A stretch of DNA of 64,000 nt from assembly GCF_001485215.1 (NCBI RefSeq), contig NZ_BBWW01000001.1:5518001-5582000 (forward strand), written 5' to 3'. The number at the start of each line of letters is the position of its first letter. Position 1 is the first letter of the stretch. Shown here piece after piece: positions 6,696 to 56,534 of the stretch. The position numbers and the translations under genes were made by a program. This DNA is from Leptolyngbya sp. NIES-2104. Its GTDB lineage: Bacteria; Cyanobacteriota; Cyanobacteriia; Leptolyngbyales; Leptolyngbyaceae. The notes under the pieces are model-generated. The model did no database searches, was not told the origin of the DNA, and was given only the letters and a program-made list of their open reading frames with translations.

Positions 6696-6796
6696 CTGAT
6701 GCCTCTCTTAAAAATTAAAAATCGCTCCCTACTTGAGCGTAAAGGAGCGTTCTGTTACCAAGAGTAGCAAATCTATCCGATCGAGCAAAATCCGAC

Positions 6797-8419
6797 TTAA
6801 GCCGCTTTCAATTGCACCAACAATTTCTGCCATTCTGCTAACATTGCCGGATCGGACGGTTGACCCCGCACCATCAGCACGACCCCTTCTTCAACCTGCC
6901 GCACTCCAAACTGATTCTCATTCACCAATTTTTCTAAAACAGGCAAAGTTCGGAACAATTCAGAGCGACTATCTTTAAACGCTTTACTGTGAGTTTTCAG
7001 ATTCCAAAGATCCGCGATCGCATATTCAATGTTGACGATCTGTTTCTGCTCGTTGTAAATCTCCAGCACCGGAAGCCGAACGATAATGCGGCGCGTCGAA
7101 AGCTGTGGAATCAGATGTGTCGTGGTACTCACACTCACATCTTTTGGAACATTCCGAATCACATTATTAATATGAACGGCTCTTTCCCACTGGCGCGGCA
7201 ACGGAACATACACTAAAGGGCGCACCGAATCTGGGATGATAAACGAAAAAGCTCGATTTGGATTGCCGCTGAACATGAAAATCAAAGACAGCACAATGCA
7301 GATCTTCCACCATCGACGAAACTTTGGCGTAAAGCGATCGGGGTGACGTTCCCACCACAAAATCGCTCCATAAAACAGTCCTGGAACAACGGTTACTGCA
7401 TATCGTAGCCAAATCGTTAAAGCCGTTTGTCCCGCTTGAGAAAAAAGCACAATCAGTGGAAATCCAGCAATGATCCAAGCGGCTCCCGACACCGCAGGCA
7501 CAAACGCCAGTGAAACCCAATGACCCGCGAGATAGTTCATTCGTCGATCGAAGGGCAAAAACAAATATTCCGCGAGTCGAATCGGATGTGTAATCATGCC
7601 CCACAGCACTTGTAGTGTCGTCGGTTCATCCGTGTCTACAAACTGTCTAAATCGCTTTGCCAGATACAACCGAGACACATCTGGCGAAAACTGCGGCTGA
7701 ATCAAATTCGTGACAACGACCACATAACTAAAACTGACCAGACAGAGCGCCACCCCAATCCAAGGATGCCGCCGACTGACGATTAGATAGACTCCGATAC
7801 CAAAGAGAATAATTCCGATTTCTTGTCGAACACCCAGCACCAAAGCCACACCAATCCAGAACCAAACCCATTTCTTTTTTTCTAATGCCAGCAGCGTCCC
7901 AAATGCAAATAACGGAATCTGACAATGCTCATAAAAGTTCGCCACCGTTGAGCCAATGACCGGGATCGCGCTGTAATAACTGCCTGTAATCCAAACTGAT
8001 AACTGGGGCGATAATCGTTGTCGTGCCAGCGCATAGAGCATCAATCCTCCCGCCGTCATCAATCCAACTTGCAACACGAGCAACGTGATCGGATGCGGAA
8101 AAAGCGCGTACAGCGGCAACCATAATAGAAAGTCAATAACGAAATGTTGACCTAGATGGATAAAAGATACGATCGGAGTCGCTCCGTCTTCGAGTGATGC
8201 AACAGAGTTCGCGGAAGTCAGTGAACTTTGGAACCAGCGCCCGTGTAGATTATTCCAAAACAGTTGATTGAATAATCCTTGATCGTAAGAGGTATAGAAA
8301 GAGAAATAGCGATTGAGCGAAATAGCTAATACAAGACAAAAAAAGATCGCCGCTAAAATCAAGGCTCGTCGGAATCCTTTTTGTTCTCGACTCGGTAAAA
8401 TCGCTTTCAACGCTTTCAT
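6797..8419 (-). CDS. DUF2079 multi-pass membrane protein
   Basis: About 540 residues with roughly ten hydrophobic segments. The opening contains FYTSYDQGLFNQLFWN, which is characteristic of DUF2079 membrane proteins; these resemble GT-C glycosyltransferases, and their function is not established. The start chosen is the ATG at 8419, which overlaps the TGA of the upstream 137-residue gene as ATGA and has AGGAG upstream. A longer frame from 8458 would overlap that gene by 43 bases. The soluble C-terminal third may be extracytoplasmic. Confidence 0.8.
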   Translation of the reverse strand: MKALKAILPSREQKGFRRALILAAIFFCLVLAISLNRYFSFYTSYDQGLFNQLFWNNLHGRWFQSSLTSANSVASLEDGATPIVSFIHLGQHFVIDFLLWLPLYALFPHPITLLVLQVGLMTAGGLMLYALARQRLSPQLSVWITGSYYSAIPVIGSTVANFYEHCQIPLFAFGTLLALEKKKWVWFWIGVALVLGVRQEIGIILFGIGVYLIVSRRHPWIGVALCLVSFSYVVVVTNLIQPQFSPDVSRLYLAKRFRQFVDTDEPTTLQVLWGMITHPIRLAEYLFLPFDRRMNYLAGHWVSLAFVPAVSGAAWIIAGFPLIVLFSQAGQTALTIWLRYAVTVVPGLFYGAILWWERHPDRFTPKFRRWWKICIVLSLIFMFSGNPNRAFSFIIPDSVRPLVYVPLPRQWERAVHINNVIRNVPKDVSVSTTTHLIPQLSTRRIIVRLPVLEIYNEQKQIVNIEYAIADLWNLKTHSKAFKDSRSELFRTLPVLEKLVNENQFGVRQVEEGVVLMVRGQPSDPAMLAEWQKLLVQLKAA

Positions 8420-13681: not shown

Positions 13682-16138
13682 ATGAATCGTGCTTGGCTCA
13701 GCTTGGGATTGATGGGGATGGGGTTGATAGTCAGTGTCGATCTCAGTTCGGCTCAAACGGTCGTACCAGATGGGTCATTGAATACGATCGTCAACACTTC
13801 AAACAATCGTGACTTCACCATCACCAATGGCGCCGCAGCAGGTAGCAACCTGTTTCACAGCTTCCGCGAATTCTCGATTCCAACAGGCGGTTCTGCCACT
13901 TTTGATCTGGTTAACACGCATAATATTTCCACGATTTTTAGTCGAGTAACTGGTAGCAATGTTTCTAGCATTGATGGACTAATCAAAACCAGTAACAGCA
14001 TCAGTCCAGTGAGTTTATTTCTCCTCAATCCCAATGGCATCCTCTTTGGGACAAATGCTCGACTCGACATCGGTGGATCGTTCATTGGCACAACTGCTAC
14101 CAGTGTCAAGTTTGCCGATGGTACAGAGTTTGCCGCCAATTCGAGTACTGCACCGCTCTTGACGATGAGTGTGCCGATCGGCTTGCAAATGGGACAAAAC
14201 CCCAGTGCAATCTCAGTCAACGGAACCGGACACACGCTGCAATTGCCAGGTACTTATGCACCCGTGATTAGAACCAGCCCACCCACATCCGGATTGCAGG
14301 TCAAGCCGAATCGAACTCTGGCACTCGTCGGAGGCAATGTGACGCTAGATGGCGGCGTTCTGTCAGCCCCGCAGGGAAGGCTAGAGATCATCAGTGGTAG
14401 CAGTGGCAGCGTCAGCTTAATACCCGTTGCTCAAGGCTGGGACTTGAATGCAGATTCTCTGCAAGCTGATCGAGATATTTTGCTCACGAATCGATCGTCC
14501 ATCGAAGCGAGTGGAGCGGGCAACACAGCCCTTCAGCTTGTCGGCAAGACGATTCAGATTCGCAATGGCTCGATCGCGCTCATGGTAACTCAGGGATCTC
14601 AACCGCCCGGAAGTTTTCAGATTAAAGCGTCCGAAGCCTTTCAACTCTCTGGACTGGATCGATCTGGCAGGCTTGGCAGCTTTGTGATCAATGATGTCTT
14701 TGCTGGAACAGGTGCAGATATGTTGATCGTGGCTCCTCAGATCAGGCTATTAGATGCGGCGATGGTTCATGCGAGAGCCTTTGGCAGAAGTCAAGCAGGG
14801 AATGTTGCAATCAAGGCATCTTCGATTCAACTCGATGGACAATTCGACACCAATTCGACAATCCGCACTAGACTTGCTGCTTCAACACTCGGTCAGAGCA
14901 ATGCAGGAATCCTCACGATTTCAGCGGATCAACTCCTTGTTCTCAATAGTGCAATCATTTCATCTTCTAACCTGGGCAGCGGACGGGGTGGAGATATGAT
15001 CATGGTTGCCAATACGGTCAAGGTTGATGGCTTTAGTCCGCTCACTCAACAGCCCGCTCTCGTGACTGTCTCGGCTTTAGGAGTAGGGAATGCAGGCAAA
15101 TTGAGCATCAACACCCAAGAATTAAGCGTGACTCGCGGAGGCAATATCAACACGTCAACGCTAGCGAGCGGTAATGCTGGCAGTTTGGAGATTACTGCGA
15201 CTCGATCGATCGAAGTGAGTGGGGGTGTGCCGTCCTTGAGCGGCGAGGTCGAGGTGAGTAGAATCGCGTCGGCGGCAAATGTGGTGTCTCGCGAGACTCA
15301 ACAAAATCTAGGATTGCCGCCAATCCCAAGTGGTGCAGCGGGCAGTCTGACCCTCAACACACCCTCGTTGAGTATCCTAAATGGCGCGACGGTTAGGGTT
15401 AGCAACCTGGGGTCAGGAAACGCTGGGACATTGAACATCAACGCGAACTCTATCTACTTGAACGGGGGTAGCATGATCGAAGCGGTGACTGCGGTGGGCG
15501 ATGGCGGCAATCTCTCCCTAACGGCTCAAACGCTCTTACTGCGCGATCGCGCTTCGATTACGGCAACCGCAGGCGGAGCAGGCAACGGCGGCAACATCAC
15601 CATTCAGTCTCCGATCGTGCTGGGATTAGGAAACAGTGACATTGTTGCGAATGCGGACAGGGGGCAAGGGGGCAATATCGCCATCACGACTCAAGGTATC
15701 TTTGGCTTGCAGAACCGCGATCGCCTCACACCCGCCAGCGACATCACCGCCAGTTCCAAATTTGGCATTAACGGAACTGTTCAAGTCAACAATGTTGGCG
15801 TTGACCCCAACGCTGGCTTAGTCGAACTCTCAAACACCCTGATTGATCAAACCCAACAACTTACAGCAGGATGTTCCTCGAATCAAGGCAGCAGTTTTGT
15901 GATGACGGGACGCGGGGGCATCCCAATGAATCCGCTTGACCAAACAGCAGGTCGCCATCGCACTTGGACAGATCTGCGTTCTCTCTCTCTAAGCAATCAA
16001 CCTGTCAGGGCTGAATCAACTTTACCATTAGTGGAAGCCACGGCTTGGAAACGCGATCTCAATGGGAGAGTCCAACTGATTGCAGAAAGCCCTATACCAT
16101 CGACGCAGACTGCGACTTGTGCAGGAGGTGATCGCTAG
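13682..16138 (+). CDS. Two-partner secretion exoprotein (filamentous haemagglutinin N-terminal domain)
   Basis: An 818-residue secreted protein. The signal peptide ends near SSAQT. It is followed by the TPS/haemagglutination domain with NLFHSFREFSI and LLNPNGILFGTNARLDIGGSF, the NPNGI motif typical of TpsA proteins. The rest is a repetitive beta-helix with many GNAG.L.I and GGN.....  turns. Such proteins are exported by an outer-membrane TpsB partner; none is visible nearby. The gene is bracketed by inverted copies of an interspersed repeat, suggesting gain by transfer or local rearrangement (inference). Confidence 0.9.
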   Translation: MNRAWLSLGLMGMGLIVSVDLSSAQTVVPDGSLNTIVNTSNNRDFTITNGAAAGSNLFHSFREFSIPTGGSATFDLVNTHNISTIFSRVTGSNVSSIDGLIKTSNSISPVSLFLLNPNGILFGTNARLDIGGSFIGTTATSVKFADGTEFAANSSTAPLLTMSVPIGLQMGQNPSAISVNGTGHTLQLPGTYAPVIRTSPPTSGLQVKPNRTLALVGGNVTLDGGVLSAPQGRLEIISGSSGSVSLIPVAQGWDLNADSLQADRDILLTNRSSIEASGAGNTALQLVGKTIQIRNGSIALMVTQGSQPPGSFQIKASEAFQLSGLDRSGRLGSFVINDVFAGTGADMLIVAPQIRLLDAAMVHARAFGRSQAGNVAIKASSIQLDGQFDTNSTIRTRLAASTLGQSNAGILTISADQLLVLNSAIISSSNLGSGRGGDMIMVANTVKVDGFSPLTQQPALVTVSALGVGNAGKLSINTQELSVTRGGNINTSTLASGNAGSLEITATRSIEVSGGVPSLSGEVEVSRIASAANVVSRETQQNLGLPPIPSGAAGSLTLNTPSLSILNGATVRVSNLGSGNAGTLNINANSIYLNGGSMIEAVTAVGDGGNLSLTAQTLLLRDRASITATAGGAGNGGNITIQSPIVLGLGNSDIVANADRGQGGNIAITTQGIFGLQNRDRLTPASDITASSKFGINGTVQVNNVGVDPNAGLVELSNTLIDQTQQLTAGCSSNQGSSFVMTGRGGIPMNPLDQTAGRHRTWTDLRSLSLSNQPVRAESTLPLVEATAWKRDLNGRVQLIAESPIPSTQTATCAGGDR

Positions 16139-16320
16139 GAGGAAGTGAGATCGTAACAGGGCGGGGGCACTCTACAGATACCCTTTCTCTTGAAATAGAA
16201 AGCTGTGAATCGTGCAGTCATTGATCTAGGTTTGCTCTGCTTTAGTGCTGGTATGTCTAGTAGATGAGTCAGAAGCGGTTGCATCGATCTCAGGATAAGG
16301 TTCTCAACTCCTAGCATAAC
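16139..16320. other. Gap before the 16.3-kb repeat
   Basis: Together with the repeat at 16321-16491 this makes a gene-free stretch of about 350 bases between the exoprotein gene and mfd. Apart from the repeat I see no recognisable gene or clear terminator. A 60-codon leftward frame here has no coding features. Confidence 0.4.
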
Positions 16321-16491
16321 TCAGGCGATAGACCCGAATTCCATTCGGGGCTAACAGTGCGAAGTCCGTTGAAACGAACTAAAGAGACTCAAATTGGCTG
16401 TTAGTCCCCTTCAGTGGACTTCGTTTGATTAGCCCCGAATTCCATTCCGGGGCTAATCAAACGAAGTGAAAAGGACTTAAAACACGCCCTA
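16321..16491 (-). repeat. Interspersed hairpin repeat, full copy, ends on mfd stop
   Basis: Read on the - strand it begins TAGGGCGTGTTTT, where TAG is the stop codon of mfd. It runs through a long hairpin (GATTAGCCCCG ... CGGGGCTAATC) and two AGTCC...GGACT hairpins, and ends TCTATCGCCTGA. Its centre matches the copy at 59711-59875 but in inverted order relative to the end module. The structure suggests a MITE-like or REP-like element that folds as RNA. Confidence 0.8.
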
Positions 16492-19400
16492 GACCAGTGC
16501 AGGCTCTGGTAGAGCGCCTTGCATTCGACTTAACCAATCAATTAAGTTCGTTAATTGTTGGTCAGCACTAAGCGCACCTAAGCCGCGAACCGTCACTTTT
16601 CCAGGCGTGAAGACAAAGCGCGATCGTAGATGCTCCGGTAAGTTCTCTTTCAGCAAGTTCCAAGCTGGCTCTTCCATTGGTGTTTCTAAAGTCACATGCT
16701 GTTTACCTTCAGGTTTAATCCGAGAGAATCCAAGTTTTTTCGCAGTTTGCTTTAGTTCCATCACACGAAGTAACTGTTGAGCCGCGATCGGGATTTGCCC
16801 ATACCAATCATTCCAATCGGCTGCGACTTGCACTAATTCTTGTTTTGATTGGGCAGCAGCAACCGCACGATACGCACTCATCTTTTGATCTAAGTCGGGA
16901 ATGTAATCGGCTGGAATGAAGGCGGTGAGACTGAGATCGATTTGTGTATCATCGACTTGCGGAATCTCTTGACCTCGAATTTCTTGAATTGCTTCTTGCA
17001 GCATTTCCATGTAGAGATCAAAGCCGATCGCATCCATTTGTCCGGATTGTTCTGCACCAAGCAAGTTACCGACTCCTCGAATTTCCATATCTCGAACGGC
17101 TAACTGATAGCCTGATCCAAGCTGGGTAAATTCTTGCAATGCTCTTAATCGTTGTCTTGCTGCATCTGAGAGTTGATATTGTTTCGGATAGAACAACCAA
17201 GCATGAGCTTGAATGCCTGCTCGTCCGACTCGACCCCGTAACTGATAAAGCTGGGAGAGTCCGAACTTCTGAGCATCTTCGATCAGAATGGTATTGACTC
17301 TCGGAATATCTAAACCGGATTCGATGATCGTGGTACAGAGCAGCACATCCGCTTCGCCACCTCCAAAAGTCAGCATCACCGATTCAAGTTCAGATTCGGG
17401 CATTTGACCATGCGCGATCGCAATTCTCACCCCCGGAATCATTTCACGAATTCGAGCAGAAATCTCTTCAATCCCTTCAACACGCGGCACGACGTAGAAG
17501 ATTTGACCCCCTCGATCGAGTTCTTGCCGAATTGCCGATCGCACCATTTCAGCATCATACGGTGATAGATGGGTCTTAATCGGACGACGAGAAGGCGGCG
17601 GTGTAGTAATCAAGCTCATTTCTCGCACACCAGAAAGCGCCATGTACAATGTTCTTGGAATCGGAGTTGCACTCAGCGTGAGAACATCAACTTGAGTTTT
17701 GAGTGATTTGATCTTCTCTTTCTGATTCACTCCAAATCGTTGTTCTTCGTCAACCACTAACAACCCTAAATCTTTGAATGCAACCCCTTTTCCTAACAGT
17801 TGATGGGTTCCAACAACAATATCTAACTCTCCGGTGATCATTCGTCGCTGAATGTCTTTGCGCTCTTCAGGACTTCGGAAACGATTGAGCAAACCGACCT
17901 GAATCGGATACGGTGCAAAGCGTTCTTTGATCGTGTGATAGTGCTGTTGAGTCAGAATTGTAGTGGGTGCAAGTAAAGCAACTTGTTTTCCAGCAGTGAC
18001 AGCTTTGAAGATAGCTCGAATTGCAACTTCAGTTTTACCAAAGCCAACATCACCGCAAACGAGGCGATCCATGGGTCGATCGCTTTCCATATCGAGCTTC
18101 ACATCTTGCACCGCTTTTAATTGATCCGGTGTTGGCTGATACGGGAAAGAATCTTCCATTTCTTGTTGCCAAGGCATATCATGCGGATAAGTAAACCCTT
18201 GTTGCTGTGCTCGTTGTGCATAGAGTTGAAGTAAGTCAACTGCAACCTTTTTAACTGCCTTGCGAACTTTGGATTTGGTCTTTTCCCAAGCCTTGCTCGA
18301 CATTTTATTTAGTTCAGGTTTCGCATCTCCCACGCCTCGGAAGCGGGATAATGCACCTAACTGATCGGCTGCAACTCGTAACAATCCATCTGCATACTTT
18401 AGGACAAGATACTCACGAGTTTCATTGTTAATGGTTAAGCTTTCGAGCTTGATAAATTGCCCAATTCCATGACTTTTATGAACTACAAAATCACCGGGTT
18501 GTAGCTTGTTTGGATCAACTTGCTTCGATGCCGCTCTACGACGTTTGCGAACATAGGTCGGAGTGGCTAAAGTTTGCTGTCCAAAAAACTCTTTATCAGT
18601 AACAACGACTAAGCGAAATGTTGGCAGGATGAAGCCTTCGAGTTCTGCTAAACCAGAGTATTTCAGCGCAACAGGAATGTGCTGAGTTTGCAGTTTGTCG
18701 ATCGCTAAATAATCCCGCTGATTCGGAACAAACTGCGCCGGACAATCATGCTCTTGTAACAGTGCGACCGATCGCGAAGGTTGCGCCGATACAAGCCAAA
18801 TTGCAAAGTTACGATCGCGCTCTCCCCGCAGTGTTTCCGCTAATCTTGCAAACTGATGTGGAATCGCTGGAACCGGGCGAGAAACGAGATTTAAGCCTTT
18901 TTTCTCTTCGGCTAATTCGTTTACGTGAATGCGATCGAACTTTTCAATCTCGATCAATGAAGCTTCTAAACTTCGGTGAATCTTTGGTAAGCTCGGCTTG
19001 ACTTCTTGCCATTGTTCTTCGACGTGTTCAATCCAGCGATCGCTGTGTGCCTGAGTCATTTCAGGTTCATCGATCGCAACGATCGTATTGCTTGGTAGAT
19101 AGTCTAATAAAGATGCAGGGTGATCAAAAGCTAATCCTAAAAATCGACGCATTCCCTCGATCGAGACACCTTCTGCAAATCGTTCTTGATCTTCGGGTGA
19201 TAGATACTCTAGAACGGTTTCATCTAATGCAGATTGAATAATCGGACTAAAGCTAGTCGGTGTTAGTGTAACTTGAGTAACTCGATCGAGCGATCGCTGT
19301 GTTCCCGGATCAAACTCACGAATCTGGTCTAACTCATCCCCGAATAGCTCCAATCGAACCGGTAACTCTGCTGCAACTGGAAACACATCAATAATGTCCC

Positions 19401-19935
19401 CACGTCGGCTCCATTGACCTTCAGTTTCAACTAAGTTCGCCCGTTCGTATCCCAATTTCGCTAACTGATCGCTCAACTGTCCCAGATTAATTTCTTTCCC
19501 TTTTTCTAGAGTTAGAAAATACGGCGAAAACGCTTCGGGTGGCGGTAAATGGGGCTGTAGAGCACGTTCGGTTGCCACGATCGCCATTTTCTCCGATCCC
19601 TTGACCAAATCGGCTAAAGTTTGCAACTGTCCCCAAGTCATTTCAGCTTCGGGATCAAACGGCTCATACGGCGACGATTCCGAAGTAGGGTAAAAATGCA
19701 CGGTATTCCAGCCCATCGCATCCATCTGAGCGCTCCAGCGTCCCGCCTCTTCCAGCGTTGCCGTCACCACTAATAAAGAGCGATCGCTATTCTGCGCCAG
19801 GGTCGAAGCGACAATCCCTTTCGCCAAACGCGACAATCCAGATAAATGTAACGTCGAATGCTGCTTGAGCTTACTGAGTAATTCTGCGGTGAGCGGCGAT
19901 CGACTAAGTGCGCGAGTAATCGAAGAAAAAGCCAT
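16489..19935 (-). CDS. mfd: Transcription-repair coupling factor Mfd
   Basis: A 1148-residue ATP-dependent translocase that removes stalled RNA polymerase and recruits the nucleotide-excision repair machinery. In order it shows a UvrB-homology N-terminus, a CarD-like RNA polymerase interaction domain ([17 protein letters not shown]), a RecG-like helicase core with Walker [10 protein letters not shown] and the DEEQ box, SATPIPRT, and the C-terminal TRCF domain. The length is normal. The TAG stop coincides with the terminal bases of the repeat at 16321-16491. Confidence 0.97.
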
Positions 19936-20032
19936 GTCGGACAGAGAGAGCTTAATGGGTCTTTACATTCTATCGAATCAGGATTCGACCAACCGCATCC
20001 GACGCGATCTGGAATACAATCGTCCCTAAAAA

Positions 20033-20103
20033 CCTGTAGAAATCTATAGGCACGTTAGCCGAACAATGCTGCTAACGATTCGTGCTGAGGAGTCTCACCT
20101 CAG
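20033..20103 (-). other. Cluster of hairpins at the 3' end of the TnpB-like gene
   Basis: Three inverted repeats follow each other: CTGAGG/CCTCAG (20085-20090 and 20098-20103, containing the TnpB-like stop codon), GTTAGC/GCTAAC (20054-20059 and 20071-20076) and CCTGTAGA/TCTATAGG (20033-20050). TnpB genes usually carry their guide RNA scaffold across and past the stop codon, so this is a candidate scaffold or right end. That role is inference from position and shape only. Confidence 0.4.
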
Positions 20104-21608
20104 TTCAGAAGTGCCAATGGCTTCCCATCCGACCTGTCCACTCGCGCAGACTTATCGAATAGGCTGACCTCCGACTCGCTGTAAGCGACACTGGTGAAAA
20201 AGCTGTGGCGACGCATCCCCTTCAGCTTTTTCGAGAGCGCATTCCAGAAACTCCAAACGTGCTTGTGTCTCTCCACTGGCAGACAGGAGGCGGACTTGGC
20301 TGGAATGCGCTCTGACTTGTGCAAAGCTCTACGCGCTAGAACCAATGCCGCAGCCGTATCAGAACTCAGTCCGTACAACTGCATAAACTTGACTAATCCA
20401 ATGAGCGAACTGTAAGCAGGATTGACGCGAATCAATTCAATGCCGAAACGCTCACATCGACTGAACAACATCGCATCAAACAGGCTGTAAGCAAAATTGG
20501 ACAGCATTCTCGCATATCGCACACCTTGTTCGCGCATCGATGCTTTCTTGCGCTCAAAGTCTAAGCGCTCAATCACAATCGGGCAACCAAACGATTGGGC
20601 AATCCCAACGAGTTGAGCGCAGACATCACCCACGATCGCTTTAGTTTGCTGCGTCGTTTTATCTTGCAGTGTGACTCGAAACTGCCCATGTGCTTTGAGA
20701 TTGCCTTCAGCATCACAGTACGACCAGCCGATGACACCGGGATTCAAGTCCACGCCCAAACACCCATTCCGGCGATGCGATTGATGCGGGACGGCAGGAC
20801 GCTCGACTGTCGCAAAGACATACCACTGCTCATTCTTTTGTGCAAATCTGTAGCTAATCGCTTTGTGGTTTTCCCGCGCCCAATCAATGTCATTCTGCCC
20901 GTAAGCAAAGCGAATCCCCTCGGCTTGAACATACTGCCCAAACTCAGCTTCAAGGACAGGCGCAACACGAATCTTCAACGTGTCATCCGCGCTGAGTTGG
21001 CAGATTTGGCAGCCATTCGTTTCGTCAGAAAAACCGACACAGTAAAACTGTGAGTTACGGTGTTGTTGCCACTGGTTTAACCATTGTTCATGCGAGACAA
21101 AGCCATTGCTCTCTAGGTTGTACTGAGCAGTCCACAGCTTGCGTCCGCCAAAAATCAGACGCGGTTTCGTTTGAGTCAGTTGCGCTAATTTGGAGCGCAG
21201 ACTGTGGAGACGACGCGGTTTCTGATGCAGCTTCCACCTTAAAGATTGGCGCGGTGTCTTTGCGTCCGGTTGTAATGGACAAGCCAACGGAATTTTGAGC
21301 AGTTGTTTCTTCCACTTCTTGATCAGTTTCTCTAGGTCTGTAATCTGCGATCGCAGTTGTTTGAGTTGTCGCTTGTGGCATTCTGCGCGACTGCGAATCT
21401 TCCCTTTGAGCGTGGCATAAATCGAGTTAAACTGACGCGCATTAATGCCATAAATGCGCTGATACTCCCGCTTGAGTTGTGCGAGATCTGTTCCTGCCTC
21501 TAAATCTTGATACAGCGCCCGTTCAACGCCAGACATCAATGAACTCATCCGCTCACAAAACGGGATAAGTGCCTCTGGTAGCTTGGTCTGGTACGTAACG
21601 CTGCTCAT
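20100..21608 (-). CDS. TnpB-related RuvC nuclease lacking the zinc finger
   Basis: A 502-residue protein with TnpB/OrfB-type RuvC motifs: D287 in LGVDLNPG, E347 in IVIERLDF and D417 in LSSDTAAALVLARR, so all three catalytic acids appear present. The CxxC...CxxC zinc finger that normally lies between the second and third motifs is replaced by VNPAYSSLIGLVKFMQLYG. The N-terminal ~270 residues are basic and helical, with a CQIC pair at 200-203. It resembles proteins annotated as TnpB-related accessory proteins of IS200/IS605 elements. It lies five bases after an RHH gene and has no TnpA nearby. RNA-guided DNA cleavage is possible but unproven. Confidence 0.75.
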   Translation of the reverse strand: MSSVTYQTKLPEALIPFCERMSSLMSGVERALYQDLEAGTDLAQLKREYQRIYGINARQFNSIYATLKGKIRSRAECHKRQLKQLRSQITDLEKLIKKWKKQLLKIPLACPLQPDAKTPRQSLRWKLHQKPRRLHSLRSKLAQLTQTKPRLIFGGRKLWTAQYNLESNGFVSHEQWLNQWQQHRNSQFYCVGFSDETNGCQICQLSADDTLKIRVAPVLEAEFGQYVQAEGIRFAYGQNDIDWARENHKAISYRFAQKNEQWYVFATVERPAVPHQSHRRNGCLGVDLNPGVIGWSYCDAEGNLKAHGQFRVTLQDKTTQQTKAIVGDVCAQLVGIAQSFGCPIVIERLDFERKKASMREQGVRYARMLSNFAYSLFDAMLFSRCERFGIELIRVNPAYSSLIGLVKFMQLYGLSSDTAAALVLARRALHKSERIPAKSASCLPVERHKHVWSFWNALSKKLKGMRRHSFFTSVAYSESEVSLFDKSARVDRSDGKPLALLN

Positions 21609-21613
21609 TGTGC

Positions 21614-21805
21614 TTAAACAGGTTCTTTTGAGTCGTCTAACAGTTTTCGCCCTTTGACAATATACGATGCAATCTCACGACGAATGACTTCGCTCATCGT
21701 TGTACTGTTTGCCATACACCAGGCATCAAACGCTGCTTTTTCATCCGGTTCGATTGCCACTTGGATAACCTCGTTTTTCTTACGCTCTAACTTCTTTCTA
21801 GGCAT
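21614..21805 (-). CDS. Ribbon-helix-helix DNA-binding protein
   Basis: A 63-residue protein with a basic start (MPRKKLERKKNE), the beta-strand VIQVAIE and two helices (DEKAAFDAWCMANS and MSEVIRREIASYI), the layout of CopG/Arc-type RHH repressors. It is the first gene of a two-gene unit; the TnpB-like gene starts five bases after its stop. Its promoter region contains three perfect TTATCTAGATAA palindromes, so autorepression is the simplest reading. A partner or control role for the nuclease is inferred. Confidence 0.8.
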   Translation of the reverse strand: MPRKKLERKKNEVIQVAIEPDEKAAFDAWCMANSTTMSEVIRREIASYIVKGRKLLDDSKEPV

Positions 21806-21830
21806 GATTTAACTCTAACTCATGCTCAGA

Positions 21831-21921
21831 ATTATATCAACAAAATTATCTAGATAAAAATCAGTGTCTTCACTGAAGTCATCTAGCTATTTATCTAGAT
21901 AAAAGCTGTTTATCTAGATAA
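21831..21921 (-). promoter_or_regulatory. Promoter and palindromic operators of the RHH-TnpB-like unit
   Basis: On the - strand a perfect TATAAT lies at 21836-21831. The palindrome TTATCTAGATAA occurs at 21846-21857, 21891-21902 and 21910-21921. A degenerate site (ATCTAG) lies at 21881-21886, and a CAGTG/CACTG hairpin sits between sites. Site 1 falls exactly between the -10 and the expected -35 position, the classic place for a repressor. Confidence 0.6.
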
Positions 21922-22113
21922 AATTGGAGCATAAGTGAGATTTCAATAGGTTCCCTCAGATTTCCTCAAGATTTAGGGTAACGGCGCTTAACCCTTGTGA
22001 AATCGGGAATTTCGCCTTTTCTCTACCCAAAGTTAGACCAAAATTCAACCCAATGCGACGGTCGATCGACGATACACTTATACAATTCGTTGCTCTCGGC
22101 TAAACTTCCCCGA

Positions 22114-23436
22114 ATGAATTCGCTTACCTCAGACCTGCTGACTATCCTGTTTCTGACATTAGCAAACGGGCTATTTGTCATGTCCGAACTCGCGATCGTG
22201 TCCGCTCGCAAAGTCCGCCTCCTACAAGCCGCGAATCAAGGCGACACCAAAGCAAGAGCGGCACTCCGACTAGCGGAACAACCGAATAACTTTTTAGCGA
22301 TCGTTCAAGTCGGAATTACGCTGATCGGTATTGCATCCGGTGCATTCGGGGAACAAGCGCTAACCCGCCGACTTGAGCCGTTTTTCCGCTCTTTCCCCGT
22401 TCTCGAACCGTATAGTCAGCCGCTTGCTTTTGGCATTGCAATTCTGACGTTGACCTATCTCACGCTGATTGTCGGTGAACTGGTTCCGAAACGGTTGGCA
22501 CTCAATTCACCCGAAGCGATCGCGGGTTGGGCAGCGGTTCCGATGAGTTTGATGGCGAAAGCGGCAGCCCCGATCGTCTATTTACTCAGTGCATCTACCA
22601 ATCTCGCCGTTCGACTCTTGGGCATTCGTCCATCGGATGAACCGCCTGTGACTGAAGAAGAAATCCGCGTGATGATCGAGCAAGGCACAGAGGCGGGAAT
22701 GTTCGAGCAGGCGGAAGAAGACATCATGAAACGAGTGTTTCGCTTAGGCGATCGACGAATTAGCTCTCTGATGACTCCCCGATTAGAGATTACCTGGATT
22801 GATTTAGAAGACTCGATCGACGAAATCCAGCGTCAGATGATGGATAGTTCGCATGCTCGATTCCCAGTTTGTCAAGGTGGATTAGATCATCTATTAGGGG
22901 TCGTCCAAACCTATGATCTTTTAGTCACCCTGATGTCTGGTCAACCACTGGACTTTACCACTTCGCTTCAGACTCCGGTGTTTGTGCCTGAAAGTACTCG
23001 TGCCTTAAAAGTTTTAGAACTGTTCAAACAAACGGGAACACAGATTGCATTTGTAGTTGATGAGTATGGTGTGATTCAGGGATTGGTCACATTGACCGAT
23101 GTGTTGCAAGCGATCGTGGGCGACATTCCAACTGTCGAAGAACTTGCAGAACCGCAAGCAGTCCAGCGTGATGATGGCTCCTGGCTGCTCGATGGAATGT
23201 TGCCAATCTATCAATTCAAAGAGATCTTGCATATTGAAGATCAAGAACTGCCCGGAGAACAACGCGGGAGCTATCAAACTTTAGGCGGATTTGTCGTCAT
23301 GTATCTCGGTCGAATTCCCACTGCTGCGGATGCGTTTGAGTGGGAAGCGTTGCGGTTTGAGGTGATGGATATGGATGGCAACCGAGTGGATAAAGTTTTA
23401 GTTGGGGCGGCAAATTCTAGAGAAACATCGGAATGA
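22114..23436 (+). CDS. CNNM/CorC-type membrane protein (DUF21-CBS-CBS-CorC_HlyC)
   Basis: A 440-residue membrane protein of the hemolysin-C/CorC family, implicated in Mg2+ or Co2+ transport. Four hydrophobic segments form the DUF21 domain (first ~180 residues). Two CBS domains (MTPRLEITWIDLEDS...; FVPESTRALKVLELF...) and a C-terminal transporter-associated domain follow. The ATG at 22114 is preferred; an upstream in-frame start at 21997 would add 39 polar residues before the first membrane segment. Its promoter must lie next to the RHH operator region. Confidence 0.88.
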   Translation: MNSLTSDLLTILFLTLANGLFVMSELAIVSARKVRLLQAANQGDTKARAALRLAEQPNNFLAIVQVGITLIGIASGAFGEQALTRRLEPFFRSFPVLEPYSQPLAFGIAILTLTYLTLIVGELVPKRLALNSPEAIAGWAAVPMSLMAKAAAPIVYLLSASTNLAVRLLGIRPSDEPPVTEEEIRVMIEQGTEAGMFEQAEEDIMKRVFRLGDRRISSLMTPRLEITWIDLEDSIDEIQRQMMDSSHARFPVCQGGLDHLLGVVQTYDLLVTLMSGQPLDFTTSLQTPVFVPESTRALKVLELFKQTGTQIAFVVDEYGVIQGLVTLTDVLQAIVGDIPTVEELAEPQAVQRDDGSWLLDGMLPIYQFKEILHIEDQELPGEQRGSYQTLGGFVVMYLGRIPTAADAFEWEALRFEVMDMDGNRVDKVLVGAANSRETSE

Positions 23437-23437
23437 T

Positions 23438-24214
23438 CTAAAGCTCTTCACGAATAATGCGCTCGACTTCTTCAACAGGCAGTTCGACGATCTCAGCAAT
23501 GTAATCGATGCTTTGTTCCCTGTTCAGTAAGTTGCGAATTACTTTAAGATTCGTCTCGTGTTGAAGCTCTCTGTAAATTCTAGTTTCACGGAATGGTGTT
23601 AGATTTAGCATGAGTTCCACCTCTTCTCGGCTCAAATTGACAAGCTTGTAAACGATAATTGTCGAGATAATATCAATTATCTCATTTCTATCAAGAAGTG
23701 GATCTGTCTCTTGTTGGACGCGATCGATGATTTCTCTTGCTTGCGCGATCGCTTCTGATTCGGGCGCGATCGTGAGCTGCATCAAATTAATTCCGATTGG
23801 TTGCTGATCTCGATCGTTTAACTCGTCAAGATAAATCCGTGTCACCTGCGCTCCACTGAGTAAAGAACGGTGCATCGTCGTATTCGTCGGCTCTAGATTA
23901 CGAGAAGGAAAAATAATCACACCATACCAATCGTCATAGAGTGTTTAGTTGCGATACAGATACAGAAGGGATTCCGAAAAGAAACGATGATAAAGAGATT
24001 CATCTTTCTGAAACTGCATCTCAGCAAAAAAGATCACTCTGGGAGAAGCATCTTCGGGCGGCAAAAATACGCCATCGATCCGAAATGTGGGTTCTTTAAC
24101 TTCGACTGACTCGAATCGGTAACGTTGGGCATCAGGAGGTCGATCGTCTACTAGCTCAAAGAGCAAGCTAGGAAAACGCTGAAAGATAGTGTAAAAAATG
24201 GCATCACGTCGCAT
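23438..24214 (-). pseudogene. Rpn-family (DUF2887) protein broken by one stop codon
   Basis: Two adjacent open stretches in the same frame (24214-23945 and 23944-23438) make one protein of about 258 codons interrupted only by TAA at 23945-23947. The upper half carries DAIFYTIFQRFP...FRIDGVFLPP...FFAEMQFQKDESLYHRFFSE, the PD-(D/E)XK core of the Rpn recombination-promoting nuclease family. The lower half continues TLYDDWYGVIIFPSRNLEP and ends in helical DUF-type tail repeats. The junction LYLYRN-stop-TLYDDWYG reads straight through, so this is a nonsense mutation and not a frameshift. A GTG at 23920 might allow a truncated C-terminal product. Confidence 0.8.
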
Positions 24215-24244
24215 ATTTAGAATTTGATGAACTTAGATTATTAC

Positions 24245-24562
24245 TTACCTCAGTGCAGCATGGATTGCTAACCAAATACAATCAGGATTAGAACTGGTAT
24301 AGCTCACACGATGTTTCTGATGTGCAGGAATCAACACATAATCACCAGTTTTAAGGTCGATCGACGTTCCATCCTCGTACATTAACTGCGCTTCCCCTTG
24401 CAACAGCAACACCCATTCATCACGCGGCTGATCGTACCATTCTCCCTCTGGTGTCGTTTGTCCAGTTGAAATAATGCGCTCAATTAGAATTTGATCCGTC
24501 TGAATCAAGGGTTCAAACAGTTCTCGATCGAGCATTTCTTCCGGTAATTCAAAAATATTCAT
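24245..24562 (-). CDS. Cupin-domain protein
   Basis: A 105-residue single-domain cupin. The metal-site motifs are partly visible: an acidic motif with WVLLLQGEAQLMYEDG and the second motif KTGDYVLIPAHQKHRVSYTS, with His residues that could bind a metal. The ATG at 24562 is preferred to an upstream in-frame start because it fits the domain. It is divergent from a Uma2 gene. Substrate and role are unknown. Confidence 0.8.
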   Translation of the reverse strand: MNIFELPEEMLDRELFEPLIQTDQILIERIISTGQTTPEGEWYDQPRDEWVLLLQGEAQLMYEDGTSIDLKTGDYVLIPAHQKHRVSYTSSNPDCIWLAIHAALR

Positions 24563-24627
24563 GGTGCCAGTGATGATTCTCGATCGCAATGGTACGCTAA
24601 AGAAACAGCACTCTGGAAGCACCAACC

Positions 24628-25287
24628 ATGCACTTGACGGCAAAAGAACTTGAAGCTTTAATGCCCGATGCGACACAACTCAATAGCGATGAGCCAGAAA
24701 TGGAAACTTCTTTACACTATGCTCAACTCGCGTTATTGGTGAATTGCTTAGAGTGGTGGTGGCGCGATCGAGAAGATTTTTTCATCGGTGCAAATCTGAC
24801 GATCTACTTCAGCCGCCAACAATTGAAAAATCGCGATTTCCGAGGACCGGATTTCTTTCTAGTTAAGAACACGCAGAAATATCCGCGTCGATCGTGGGTC
24901 GTCTGGGAAGAAGATGGACGTTATCCCGATGTCATTATCGAATTACTTTCCGACGAAACCAAGAACACAGATAAGGGATTGAAGAAAGATCTCTATCAAA
25001 ATCGATTCCGAACGGCAGAATATTTCTGGTTTTCACCGAGTGATCTTGAGTTTGCTGGATTTCGATTAGCGGGAGAACAGTATCAAGCGATCGAGCCAAA
25101 CGCAAATGGTCAACTTTGGAGCGAATCGTTAGAGTTATTTTTGGGCGTTCACAACAATCAATTGAGATACTTTCAACCAAACGGTGAGATTGTCCCAACT
25201 CCCGCTGAGGCTGCGCTTTCAGCCCAACAAATAGCTGAACGACTCGCTGAACAATTACGATCGCTTGGTATTGATCCAGAACTTTAG
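24628..25287 (+). CDS. Uma2-family (DUF820) PD-(D/E)XK protein
   Basis: A 219-residue member of the Uma2 family, very abundant in cyanobacteria. The restriction-endonuclease-like core shows RGPDFFLVKN and PDVIIELLSDETKNTDKGLKKDLYQ, with the D...E-x-L pattern of the active site. The tail carries a helical AERLAEQLRSLGIDPEL end, which recurs at the end of the Uma2 protein encoded at 48568-49305. Nuclease activity is not established for the family. One of four copies in the window. Confidence 0.85.
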   Translation: MHLTAKELEALMPDATQLNSDEPEMETSLHYAQLALLVNCLEWWWRDREDFFIGANLTIYFSRQQLKNRDFRGPDFFLVKNTQKYPRRSWVVWEEDGRYPDVIIELLSDETKNTDKGLKKDLYQNRFRTAEYFWFSPSDLEFAGFRLAGEQYQAIEPNANGQLWSESLELFLGVHNNQLRYFQPNGEIVPTPAEAALSAQQIAERLAEQLRSLGIDPEL

Positions 25288-25312
25288 GAGGACATTTGAA
25301 ACAGGTCGTTCC

Positions 25313-25353
25313 TTGCATTCATCCGCCCCGGAATGGAATTCGGGGCGGGACAG
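25313..25353 (+). repeat. Interspersed hairpin repeat, short copy
   Basis: CCGCCCCG, GAATGGAATT and CGGGGCGG form a perfect 8-base-pair stem with a 10-base loop. This is the core module of the repeat family seen at 13.4, 16.3, 43.9 and 59.7 kb. It sits between the Uma2 gene and the caspase-like gene. Confidence 0.8.
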
Positions 25354-25371
25354 TAACGAAAACAAAGAGAC

Positions 25372-25427
25372 TTTTTATACGTTTTATACGTTTCAAACAC
25401 CCTTTTTATACGCTTCAAACCTCCTCT
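25372..25427. repeat. Short AT-rich direct repeats
   Basis: TTTTATACGTTTCAAACACC and TTTTATACGCTTCAAACCTC repeat in tandem, with an extra TTTATACG before them. They abut the 3' end of the caspase-like gene. No function is evident. Confidence 0.6.
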
Positions 25428-26640
25428 AAGACTTACCCCACGATCCAGCCTCACATCGAATCAATCGATCGAGCGTTTGAATCGATCGAGCATTTTTAGA
25501 AGTCCTGACTCGTCGCTCCATTGCTACATTCGTCAACTCCATCGACAGTCGAACTAAATACGCTTCATCTTCAGCCGTTTTCACTAATTCGGGATTGAGC
25601 GATCGCAGATTTCCATTCAACGATCGATTCAAATCAAACTTAAACTGGCGGCTCAAAGATTCAATCACAAAGCGCTGTTCAGGGCGGGCAATTTTTGCTA
25701 AAGGTGCGATTGTTTGTCCTAAAATTTGCTCTCGCATGGTTGGATTGTTCACTTGTCGCTGAAGCCAAGCTTCCGAAGTTGAAACAGGTAAATCCGTGGT
25801 GAACTTATCAATCTTGGCGTAGGCGTGAGCTTCAGAATACGAAATGCGTCCGTCTTTGTTGTAGTCTGCTGAAGCAACTTTGCGACCAATGCGATCGCGT
25901 CCGGTTAACCCAGCAAAAAAGCTCGAACTATAGTCGCGATAGTCTGCTTCGTTCACTTCTGGAGTACAGCCGACCGAAGGACGAGATTTAATCGTTGCAA
26001 AAAATCCGCAGCGGGTTTGCAACGCGATTCCTTTGTTTGGATCACCCCCGTTGTAGATCAAGTTTGCAAAGGAGCCAGAGTAACATTGAGACATCATCGT
26101 GACAAAGGGCTTGTTTTGTGGAAGTCGATCGAGCATTGCGGTAAAGTTCTGCACACTCAATTCGCGATCGCGCCACATCAGTAAACTCGAATTATCCTCA
26201 TTGACGCGATTGTGTCCGCCATGTCCTGAAAAGTAGAAAAACAATGGAGTTGCTGTTTTCTCTTTGGCAGCTTGAGCCATCCAAGTTTGTAAGTTCGCAA
26301 TGCTCGAAGCCCCTTGCACATTTGGAACAGTGTGAGCTTTGAACTGTTGATCGCCTTTTTCGTCTAAATATCGAACCGTTTTTTCGCCTGTGTTGCCGTT
26401 TGCAAAATAAATCGGTGCATCGCTTGTGGAGTATCCGAGTTCTTTTAGCGATCGCTGAAAATACAGCATATTTTTCTCAAGTGCAATCTCATTGTATGAA
26501 GGCGCACCACCGCCCCCAAACACGAGAAAATTTTGTGTAGTTCGCTGACAAGTCGGCTTATTTTGGCTAATCGCTTGTGAATCCGTCAATGTAAAACTGG
26601 CGATGCTGGCGAGAACTACCGGGATAAATCGTTGCATCAT
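25426..26640 (-). CDS. Exported caspase-like (clan CD) cysteine protease with EF-hand loop
   Basis: A 404-residue protein with a signal peptide (first ~22 residues). The catalytic dyad of clan CD is visible: H140 in YFSGHGGH and C186 in MMSQCYSGSF; the Cys motif is closer to the C13/legumain type than to classical metacaspases. A complete EF-hand-type loop follows (D259, N261, D263, R265, S267, E270), which suggests Ca2+ control. The C-terminal ~120 residues are helical. Substrates are unknown. Orthocaspases are common in filamentous cyanobacteria; this exported form is unusual. Confidence 0.75.
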   Translation of the reverse strand: MMQRFIPVVLASIASFTLTDSQAISQNKPTCQRTTQNFLVFGGGGAPSYNEIALEKNMLYFQRSLKELGYSTSDAPIYFANGNTGEKTVRYLDEKGDQQFKAHTVPNVQGASSIANLQTWMAQAAKEKTATPLFFYFSGHGGHNRVNEDNSSLLMWRDRELSVQNFTAMLDRLPQNKPFVTMMSQCYSGSFANLIYNGGDPNKGIALQTRCGFFATIKSRPSVGCTPEVNEADYRDYSSSFFAGLTGRDRIGRKVASADYNKDGRISYSEAHAYAKIDKFTTDLPVSTSEAWLQRQVNNPTMREQILGQTIAPLAKIARPEQRFVIESLSRQFKFDLNRSLNGNLRSLNPELVKTAEDEAYLVRLSMELTNVAMERRVRTSKNARSIQTLDRLIRCEAGSWGKS

Positions 26641-26677
26641 AGTAACTATTGTGACCTTTCTAGAAATTATACCTAAG

Positions 26678-27523
26678 CTACAGTTGGCGAATGGAATGAA
26701 TCAGCCCTTCACACACTTTTGTTAGAAAATCGAAATCTAGTGTTTCAATGCGATCGCTCGGTTTGTGATAGTTCGGATTCCTTAAATTTGCGGTATCTGT
26801 CACCATTAATGCTCGATAGCCTCGATCCCAAAACGCCGCATGATCACCCCGACGAGTATCCGGCACAATCTTGCCCCGCATTCCCGCCGGAAGCCATTCA
26901 CATCCAATGTTCGATCGACGAATTTCCCGACTCAATCGCATCAGATCTGGAATGGTTGGAATGTTGCCGATTAGTGCAATGAAGTTTCCTTGATCCGGAT
27001 AAAACCGCTCTAATCCTGCGGGATACAGTTGTGAATTGCGATCGTGATTGCAGTATCCCAACATTTCCAAAGCAATCATCAATCTCAAAGGTTCACCATT
27101 CAATGACATTGCATACTGACTGTTACCGTGTGTATCTGTTTGCGTAAAGTTCTCTTCTAGATCAAAAGCAACTAATCGAATCGGATAACGGGCAGATTGT
27201 TCAGAAAAAGCCTTTGCCATTTCTAGTAACACAGCAACTCCAGTCGCATTGTCATCTGCACCCGGAGAATTTGGTACAGCATCATAATGTGCGCCGATCA
27301 AAATGGGGGGTTTTCGATTCTCGCGCCCTGCTAGATTCAAAATCCAATTGTAGTGAGTGCGCTTTCCCACTTGAAACGCCTGATATTCAACCGTTCCCCA
27401 GTGTGAAAACTGTTCGCGAATGTATTGCTGAACGTAGAAATGTCCTTGAGTTGCAAAGAATGGATCGCGATCGCGACTGATCACCTCAATATGCGATCGC
27501 AGTCTTTCAGTTAGCTCTTGCAT
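26678..27523 (-). CDS. M28-family metallopeptidase
   Basis: A 281-residue zinc aminopeptidase-like protein. The metal-binding motif GAHYDAVPNSPGADDNATG has H79 and D90. It is followed by FDLEENF with the Glu pair and a late RRGDHAAFWDRGYRALMVTDTANLRNPNYH, all classical M28 positions. No signal peptide is visible, so it may act in the cytoplasm on peptides or modified N-termini. It is 37 bases from the caspase-like gene and 6 bases from the PhzF gene on the same strand, so the three may form an operon. Confidence 0.88.
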   Translation of the reverse strand: MQELTERLRSHIEVISRDRDPFFATQGHFYVQQYIREQFSHWGTVEYQAFQVGKRTHYNWILNLAGRENRKPPILIGAHYDAVPNSPGADDNATGVAVLLEMAKAFSEQSARYPIRLVAFDLEENFTQTDTHGNSQYAMSLNGEPLRLMIALEMLGYCNHDRNSQLYPAGLERFYPDQGNFIALIGNIPTIPDLMRLSREIRRSNIGCEWLPAGMRGKIVPDTRRGDHAAFWDRGYRALMVTDTANLRNPNYHKPSDRIETLDFDFLTKVCEGLIHSIRQL

Positions 27524-56418: not shown

Positions 56419-56534
56419 CGGAAATCTCCGAGAAACCCTGCCGTTCTAGGGCAGGGAGGGATAGGAGCGTCAATCAAGCGGTTCAATGCCGCGCTGATTG
56501 GCAATCTCACACAAACGAAGTGAGAATGTGGCGT

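What the first reader, a model, noticed from the sequence alone, without database searches (positions are those of the whole stretch)
20033..21921. Self-contained RHH + zinc-finger-less TnpB-like nuclease cassette with palindromic operators
A 63-residue ribbon-helix-helix gene is coupled (5-base gap) to a 502-residue TnpB-like RuvC protein. Three perfect TTATCTAGATAA palindromes lie upstream and a hairpin cluster lies at the 3' end. There is no TnpA. This looks like a regulated, possibly domesticated, RNA-guided nuclease or regulator locus rather than an ordinary insertion sequence. The gene pair, operators and hairpins are seen; the system-level reading is inference.
Basis: partly seen in the sequence, partly recalled or inferred. 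Interest (0 to 1): 0.78.

Follow-up and report, generated by a model that had tools for sequence, protein, structure and literature searches.

The report
Repressor-controlled TnpB element lacking its transposase
A small mobile element in a cyanobacterium carries an RNA-guided nuclease with its guide RNA intact, but in place of the usual transposase gene it has a plasmid-type repressor gene with likely binding sites, suggesting that nuclease and guide RNA are switched together by a self-limiting regulator.

Summary
In detail: an RHH gene, a 502-aa zinc-finger-less TnpB-like gene, three perfect TTATCTAGATAA palindromes (found nowhere else in the 6.39-Mb genome) and conserved 3' hairpins. The reading changes in part. 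The locus is a bounded insertion (20020-21994) with the ends of an IS607-type TnpB element; two congeneric genomes hold the empty mfd-corC site. The hairpins are an omega-RNA: a covariance model built from 34 relatives without the window finds it at 70.3 bits, with strong compensatory change; two Rfam searches gave no matching family. The nuclease belongs to a widespread TnpB clade, often beside an IS607 serine transposase (full-length ORF in 33 of 98 loci). All 76 aligned rows lack the zinc finger; the window keeps D-E-D. No RHH gene was found in 167 other fetched loci (overlapping and distant ones included), so the pair is not a conserved cassette. The RHH gene does have close relatives on two Nostoc plasmids, with the same dyad (TATCNNGATA) at the same distance from the start codon. 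Best reading: an IS607-derived TnpB element whose transposase was replaced by a plasmid-type autorepressor controlling nuclease and guide RNA. Repression and cleavage are untested; domestication is not shown.

The parts
20020..21994 (-). whole element (1975 bp), IS607-type TnpB element inserted between mfd and a CorC-like gene (gene names from my reading)
   Evidence: empty sites in G403 (L119) and G406 (L118); ends match family consensus
21989..21994 (-). left-end terminus GGGTTA (followed by AGCGCCGTTACCC)
   Evidence: relatives: GGGTTA then ..RCAGT
21846..21857 (-). operator-like O1, perfect TTATCTAGATAA; dyad centre 46 bp before the RHH start, 9 bp upstream of a TATAAT at 21831-21836
21891..21902 (-). 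operator-like O2, perfect TTATCTAGATAA
21910..21921 (-). operator-like O3, perfect TTATCTAGATAA
21835..21844 (-). possible degenerate dyad (2 mismatches of 8) 12 bp from O1, same spacing as the tandem Nostoc dyads
   Evidence: inference
21880..21889 (-). possible degenerate dyad (2 mismatches of 8) 12 bp from O2
   Evidence: inference
21614..21805 (-). RHH (CopG-like) regulator gene, 63 aa
   Evidence: Pfam RHH_9 E 4e-4 and RHH_1 E 0.0077 (both below curated cut-offs); PHROG transcriptional repressor E 4.8e-6; 74% and 64% identical Nostoc plasmid proteins
20100..21608 (-). tnpB-like gene, 502 aa; RuvC residues D287, E347, D417; no zinc finger
   Evidence: TIGR01766 40.1 bits, above its cut-off of 32; triad; AlphaFold2 pLDDT 88.5 and fold matches
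20046..20122 (-). conserved omega-RNA core (two covarying stems), overlapping the tnpB 3' end by 23 bases
   Evidence: covariance model R1 built without the window: 70.3 bits, E 3.7e-17
20020..20032 (-). right-end terminus TTTTTAGGGACGA; terminal GG of relatives is GA here
   Evidence: GG in 44 of 46 right ends counted, GA in 2 (window and L071)
20000..20019 (-). predicted guide (first 20 nt of the right flank)
   Evidence: only match in own genome with up to 3 mismatches; guide role inferred from TnpB biology

Best explanation
The locus is an IS607-derived, transposase-less TnpB element (20020-21994). Its coding part is a two-gene operon: a plasmid-type RHH repressor followed by a zinc-finger-less TnpB nuclease. 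[quoted passage not shown] RHH dimers bind TATCNNGATA dyads at the promoter and repress the operon, so that nuclease and guide RNA stay low once repressor has built up and are made in a burst when the element enters a cell without repressor. TnpB then uses the flank-encoded guide to cut uninterrupted copies of the insertion site, which favours keeping or copying the element. Shown: the ends, the empty sites, the conserved omega-RNA, the intact triad, and the RHH-dyad arrangement shared with two Nostoc plasmids. Inferred: co-transcription, RHH binding, repression, burst expression, RNA-guided cutting, and replacement of an ancestral tnpA.
For: Empty mfd-corC sites in two congeners match both flanks. 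Left and right ends match multicopy relatives in G187, Neobacillus and Calothrix. A serine-transposase ORF of at least 150 aa lies within 300 bp upstream of tnpB in 33 of 98 related loci and a shorter fragment in 16 more (MerR + Resolvase domains in the one Pfam-scanned). In the tree the window groups with 8 cyanobacterial rows (support 100/95), of which 4 have full and 2 partial TnpA ORFs. Omega-RNA: 12 of 17 tested pairs show changes on both sides; covariation score 0.669 against 0.188 shuffled; a window-free model finds the window at 70.3 bits. D287, E347, D417 intact; fold like Cas12f, Cas12k and ISDra2 TnpB. RHH relatives on pNOS7524.01 and pNLP3 have two exact TATCNNGATA dyads with centres 45/33 and 44/32 bp before the start codon; the window has an exact one at 46 and a two-mismatch one at 34. 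The palindrome occurs only here in the genome.
Against: No RHH gene beside any other fetched TnpB relative: 0 of 167 loci, so the coupling is a single case and could be chance adjacency. The more distant RHH relative (L114, 43%) has no such dyads upstream. The RHH Pfam scores are below curated cut-offs; the single-sequence model lacks the beta-strand, has pTM 0.46 and finds only insignificant fold matches (best E 4.4). The sigma-70 promoter scan is at chance level and does not list the TATAAT at 21831. No transcript, binding or cleavage data exist here.
Confidence: 0.66

Rival explanations
1. Ordinary transposase-less TnpB element. The RHH gene is an unrelated passenger or a gene trapped between the left end and tnpB, and has no regulatory role over the nuclease.
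For: TnpB-only elements are common in this clade: no TnpA-like ORF within 300 bp upstream in 49 of 98 loci and only a fragment in 16 more (two of the 49 hold under 300 bp of upstream sequence, and some contigs are truncated). RHH is absent from all other fetched relatives.
Against: RHH lies inside the element ends, same strand, 5 bases from tnpB. Its dyads keep the plasmid relatives' position, and the word occurs nowhere else in the genome, so its only apparent target is the region upstream of this gene pair.
Confidence: 0.2
2. Domesticated RNA-guided regulator (TldR-like): the protein binds DNA under an omega-RNA guide and represses a host gene, with RHH as co-regulator.
For: Loss of transposase, single copy, right-end core changed from GG to GA.
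Against: Triad D287/E347/D417 intact. The 20-nt guide matches only its own flank with up to 3 mismatches. Six congeneric mfd-corC regions compared lack the element.
Confidence: 0.06
3. Decaying insertion: protein and RNA are remnants on the way to loss.
For: Right-end core GA instead of GG; no transposase beside it; no TnpA match in the own genome (without a positive control).
Against: Full-length ORF, intact triad, omega-RNA core scoring like multicopy relatives (70.3 bits, against 70.9 for five of the six G187 copies found).
Confidence: 0.08

Closest known systems
IS607-family elements (serine TnpA + TnpB)
   Same: Ends, GG target dinucleotide, TnpB with 3' omega-RNA; relatives carry a serine recombinase, MerR + Resolvase in the one scanned. 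PMC6188088 (passages read) reports GG at termini and (G)GG targets.
   Different: No tnpA; an RHH gene with operator-like dyads sits in its place; right-end core is GA.
IS607 TnpB with RAGATH-18 reRNA (ISFba1 type; PMC11061315, passages read)
   Same: IS607-linked TnpB with a structured 3' guide RNA; predicted fold related (8iaz, E 1.6e-5).
   Different: About 390 aa in that paper, 502 aa here; no zinc finger here; the RNA matches no Rfam family at the gathering score (12 related loci), and in the window stretch only a chance-level sRNA match up to E 5.
ISDra2 TnpB (8exa) and Cas12f / Cas12k
   Same: Predicted fold; VIA-align Z 15.3 (ISDra2 TnpB), 16.0 (Cas12f), 16.6 (Cas12k), close to tied.
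   Different: No zinc finger here; no CRISPR-like repeat array found within 15000-27000.
TldR (nuclease-dead TnpB repressors; PMC13418256, search listings only)
   Same: TnpB-derived and linked with gene regulation.
   Different: The triad is intact here; regulation is proposed to act on the nuclease gene, not by it. That TldR has lost its catalytic residues is recalled, not read here.
Nostoc plasmid RHH regulators (WP_015116125.1, WP_104910233.1)
   Same: 74% and 64% identity; two TATCNNGATA dyads at the same distance from the start codon.
   Different: There they stand alone (pNLP3) or before a DUF6009 gene (pNOS7524.01), not before tnpB.

Membership tests
TnpB (RNA-guided nuclease family) | RuvC D-E-D triad | tested here: met
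   D287, E347, D417; in 76 rows the first residue is D in 75, the second E in 76, the third H45 D21 G8 S1 A1
TnpB (RNA-guided nuclease family) | C4 zinc finger between RuvC-II and III (part of the TnpB/Fanzor motif in PMC3627910, passages; 'many TnpBs' in PMC10711439, passages) | tested here: not met
   0 of 76 rows have CxxC there; the canonical TnpB at 56406-57722 of the same window does match the TNB domain. Called TnpB-like for this reason
TnpB (RNA-guided nuclease family) | omega-RNA at the 3' end of the gene ending at the element's right end | tested here: met
   as a conserved covarying structure; transcription not tested
TnpB (RNA-guided nuclease family) | curated family score | tested here: inconclusive
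   TIGR01766 above cut-off (40.1 against 32); NF040570 below (45.8 against 100); Pfam TNB below cut-off (15 against 26.3)
TnpB (RNA-guided nuclease family) | RNA-guided DNA cutting | not testable with these tools
   needs bench work
IS607 family element | serine recombinase TnpA | tested here: not met
   no ORF or clear remnant beside it; 0 matches in the own genome (no positive control). Hence 'IS607-derived', not a complete IS607
IS607 family element | insertion at GG without target duplication; family ends | tested here: met
   empty sites; left-end GGG kept, right-end GG is GA here
RHH (CopG/MetJ/Arc-like) regulator | RHH profile match | tested here: inconclusive
   E 4e-4 and 0.0077, both below gathering scores; PHROG repressor family E 4.8e-6
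RHH (CopG/MetJ/Arc-like) regulator | beta-strand plus two helices | tested here: inconclusive
   single-sequence model shows helices 20-32 and 37-59 but no strand; fold matches are insignificant (E 4.4 and worse), MazEF-mt1, TacA1 and MatP complexes among them
TldR | loss of RuvC catalytic residues (recalled) | tested here: not met
   triad intact
type V CRISPR-Cas (Cas12) | CRISPR array nearby | tested here: not met
   only two-copy repeats of 20-27 nt in 15000-27000, no array; rest of the window not searched for arrays
RAGATH-18-guided IS607 TnpB | RAGATH-18 RNA | tested here: not met
   no such Rfam match up to E 5 in 19900-22100, none at gathering score in 12 related loci

The most novel reading that the evidence does not exclude
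A transposon-borne RNA-guided nuclease under dedicated autogenous transcriptional control. The element gave up its transposase for a plasmid-type repressor module and persists as a fixed, self-limiting homing or maintenance locus: nuclease and guide RNA are released in a burst in repressor-free cells and cut only empty alleles of one chromosomal site.
Probability: 0.28. Interest if true: 0.72.

Novelty: new variant of a known kind. Interest (0 to 1): 0.5.

Why it matters
How cells and elements limit the danger of TnpB nucleases is, to my knowledge, poorly known. Here a wiring can be read from the sequence: one repressor, perfect operator-like dyads and one gene pair that also carries the guide RNA. 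The parts are small and testable in laboratory strains. The work also defines an omega-RNA family shared by a zinc-finger-less TnpB clade that spans many phyla, for which two Rfam searches gave no matching family, and shows that the third RuvC residue in this clade is more often H than D (45 against 21 of 76 rows).

Tried and rejected
Conserved RHH-TnpB cassette: rejected. An RHH profile (4 sequences, window included) against all six frames of 168 loci hit only the own locus (L001) and the controls; the next hit had E 0.45. The 167 others include overlapping loci, fragments and 45 viral contigs that are mostly distant. Only the best 80 of 530 genome contigs relatives were fetched, so 450 were not seen. 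RHH relatives elsewhere, own hit not counted: 1 in 386 genomes by single sequence; 3 in 386 by profile, two of them weak; 2 in 42, one weak; 2 plasmid records; none in phage records or viral contigs. The genome hit G125 and plasmid pNLP3 appear to be the same replicon (equal length, 58727).

TldR-like reading: rejected on triad and guide. RAGATH-18: no match. A sau-13 match over the operators (E 0.77, below gathering) was taken as chance. TnpA remnants: the best tblastn hits (E 1e-4) fall inside tnpB itself and were taken as chance. A first count of TnpA by a text motif gave 31 of 98 loci; a blastp recount gave 33 full and 16 partial and is the one reported; the tree was labelled before that recount, with L032, L061 and L090 added by hand. 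A special kinship with Cas12k was considered from rank 1 of VIA-align, but Z values are close and the sequence profile listed no Cas12k chain up to E 10; not claimed. A pseudoknot between the loop and an upstream stretch was counted; it has no both-sided changes and 75% of cells paired, so it is not claimed. The protein profiles found few solved relatives: none to E 0.01 with 11 rows; with 76 rows the best were Cas12f chains at E 0.002. A viral-contig scan with the single protein found no relative.

Rows dropped before counts: for alignment A3, of 46 non-window right ends, L023, L026, L031, L039, L083, L084, L097, L054, L096 (near-copies or interrupted) and L003 (false right end) were dropped by script, L071 failed the anchor pattern, and I left out L037 (deviant core), giving 34. 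Right-end counts leave out L003; in the other loci no such right end was found, many of them more distant or truncated. For A4, rows outside 440-600 aa, near-copies and fragments were left out by script, giving 75 plus the window. The RNA model found 25 of 58 further loci at E up to 0.1, one of them (L103) on the opposite strand and likely chance; the two plasmid loci gave none.

Full report
What is there. The tnpB-like ORF (20100-21608, -) and the RHH ORF (21614-21805, -) are separated by five bases. Upstream stand three perfect TTATCTAGATAA palindromes, which occur nowhere else in the 6.39-Mb genome. The nuclease is single copy at E 0.001; its RNA gave one match too, with 150 of 1454 first-look candidates scored.

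It is an inserted element. The neighbours are mfd and a CorC-like gene (names from my reading of the ORFs). In two congeneric genomes (L119, L118; mfd 96-97% identical over 200 aa) the intergenic region is continuous where the window carries about 1.97 kb extra. Six congeneric regions were aligned (L118-L123): none shows the element. L120, L122 and L123 have shorter, diverged spacers; L121 holds other sequence and its contig ends early, but its genome had no nuclease match. Comparing multicopy relatives (G187, Neobacillus, Calothrix) gave their ends: GGGTTA followed by ..RCAGT at the left and TTTTAGGARCGG at the right. The window has GGGTTAAGCGCCGT and TTTTTAGGGACGA. Of 46 right ends counted, 44 end in GG and 2, the window and L071, in GA. 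PMC6188088 (passages) reports GG at IS607 termini and a (G)GG target, consistent with exchange over a 2-bp identical sequence; a GA core would then hinder excision (inference).

The nuclease. Relatives were found in 13 of 386 cyanobacterial genomes, own included, in 4 of 42 genomes of the order, own included, in 57 plasmid records, only 6 of them over 80% of the query and many distant, and in 530 of 570 pattern-matched stretches of genome contigs, of which the best 80 were fetched. A TnpA-like ORF of at least 150 aa lies within 300 bp upstream in 33 of 98 loci, a shorter one in 16, none in 49; the one scanned has MerR and Resolvase domains. In the tree the window pairs with a Hormoscilla protein (98/82) within nine cyanobacterial rows (100/95); of the eight others, four have full and two partial TnpA ORFs. 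The clade lacks the zinc finger (0 of 76 rows). The third catalytic position is H in 45, D in 21, G in 8, S in 1 and A in 1 of 76; the window has D. The model is confident (pLDDT 88.5, pTM 0.80) and resembles Cas12f, Cas12k and TnpB. Clades in PMC10278001 (section 13 read) are defined by RuvC-III motifs DRDXN or NADXN or by rearrangements; the SSDTA/SSHxA motif here does not read as either of the first two, and I could not place it in their tree. In Cas12m2 a non-canonical HDD triad goes with loss of cleavage (PMC10442227, passages), but there the H is at the first position, so it does not settle what H at the third position does here.

The guide RNA. The 3' ends of relatives from cyanobacteria, Bacillota, Chlamydiota, Pseudomonadota and others share one architecture. 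On 34 window-free sequences two stems covary: 91.3% of cells paired against 67.6% shuffled (this count includes the unproven pseudoknot), 159 cells with changes on both sides against 41.4, score 0.669 against 0.188; sliding the partner by one column drops the score to 0.17-0.19. The model finds the window at 70.3 bits (E 3.7e-17) and otherwise nothing convincing in 64 kb (next E 0.45). In 194 cyanobacterial genomes, searched with stricter filters, it hits 3, and all 3 have the nuclease; other genomes with more distant nucleases (such as G011) gave no hit. Rfam 15 gave no match at gathering scores in 12 related loci and only a chance-level sau-13 match in the window stretch. That TnpB cuts its own mRNA into omega-RNA is from PMC10278001 (abstract and passages). 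The predicted guide, 20000-20019, matches only itself in the genome with up to 3 mismatches.

The regulator. The closest RHH relatives found are on Nostoc plasmids pNOS7524.01 and pNLP3, before a DUF6009 gene and alone, respectively. Each has two exact TATCNNGATA dyads, centres at 45/33 and 44/32 bp before the start codon. The window has exact dyads at 46, 91 and 110 and two-mismatch dyads at 34 and 79, so the 12-bp phasing may recur; 0 of 2000 base shuffles of the 190-bp upstream stretch reached the exact counts in each of the three. A more distant relative (L114, 43%) shows none. This makes it likely that the RHH gene and its dyads moved as one module. O1 lies 9 bp upstream of a TATAAT (21831-21836) and would cover the -35 region; the formal promoter scan is at chance level and does not list this site.

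Mechanism. Most likely: autorepression of one operon for repressor, nuclease and guide RNA, giving low steady levels and a burst in naive cells, while TnpB acts against empty alleles. A gene-drive role of TnpB in IS200/605 elements on plasmids is reported in PMC11870625 (abstract and outline). The co-transcription, binding, repression and cutting steps here are inference.

Is it in print? Searches for TnpB with 'ribbon-helix-helix' (3 papers, titles and opening abstracts only), TnpB with CopG/repressor/IS607, and TnpB with regulator terms showed no RHH-controlled TnpB in the listings; the library lacks most subscription journals. Verdict: new variant of a known kind, single example.

Noticed in passing
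window 56406-57722 (+): A second, canonical TnpB (OrfB_IS605 E 3e-30, TNB domain E 1.1e-25, HTH) lies in the same window; it served as a contrast for the missing zinc finger.
   Followed up: partly
alignment A4, column of D417: The third RuvC residue is H in 45 and G in 8 of 76 rows; whether the H and G forms cut DNA is open.
   Followed up: partly
L116 and L117, about 5945-5975: Nostoc plasmid RHH genes have tandem TATCATGATA dyads 12 bp apart; TATCNNGATA looks like a portable operator.
   Followed up: yes
L096 around 6650-6800: A long inserted segment sits between the omega-RNA stems and the right end in a Parabeggiatoa copy.
   Followed up: no
L121 (G405), mfd-side intergenic region: Different sequence with an inverted repeat (seen by eye) occupies this region in a congener; the contig ends soon after.
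   Followed up: no
L030, L031, L039 (Hormoscilla): A tnpB of the same clade without a TnpA ORF beside it lies in matching flanks in three Hormoscilla genomes with a shared guide flank; in L039 the ORF is split in two. A better candidate for a vertically kept locus.
   Followed up: partly
G187: Six omega-RNA copies were found. One search listed four nuclease matches, but scored only 4 of 18 candidates, so the copy numbers cannot yet be compared.
   Followed up: no
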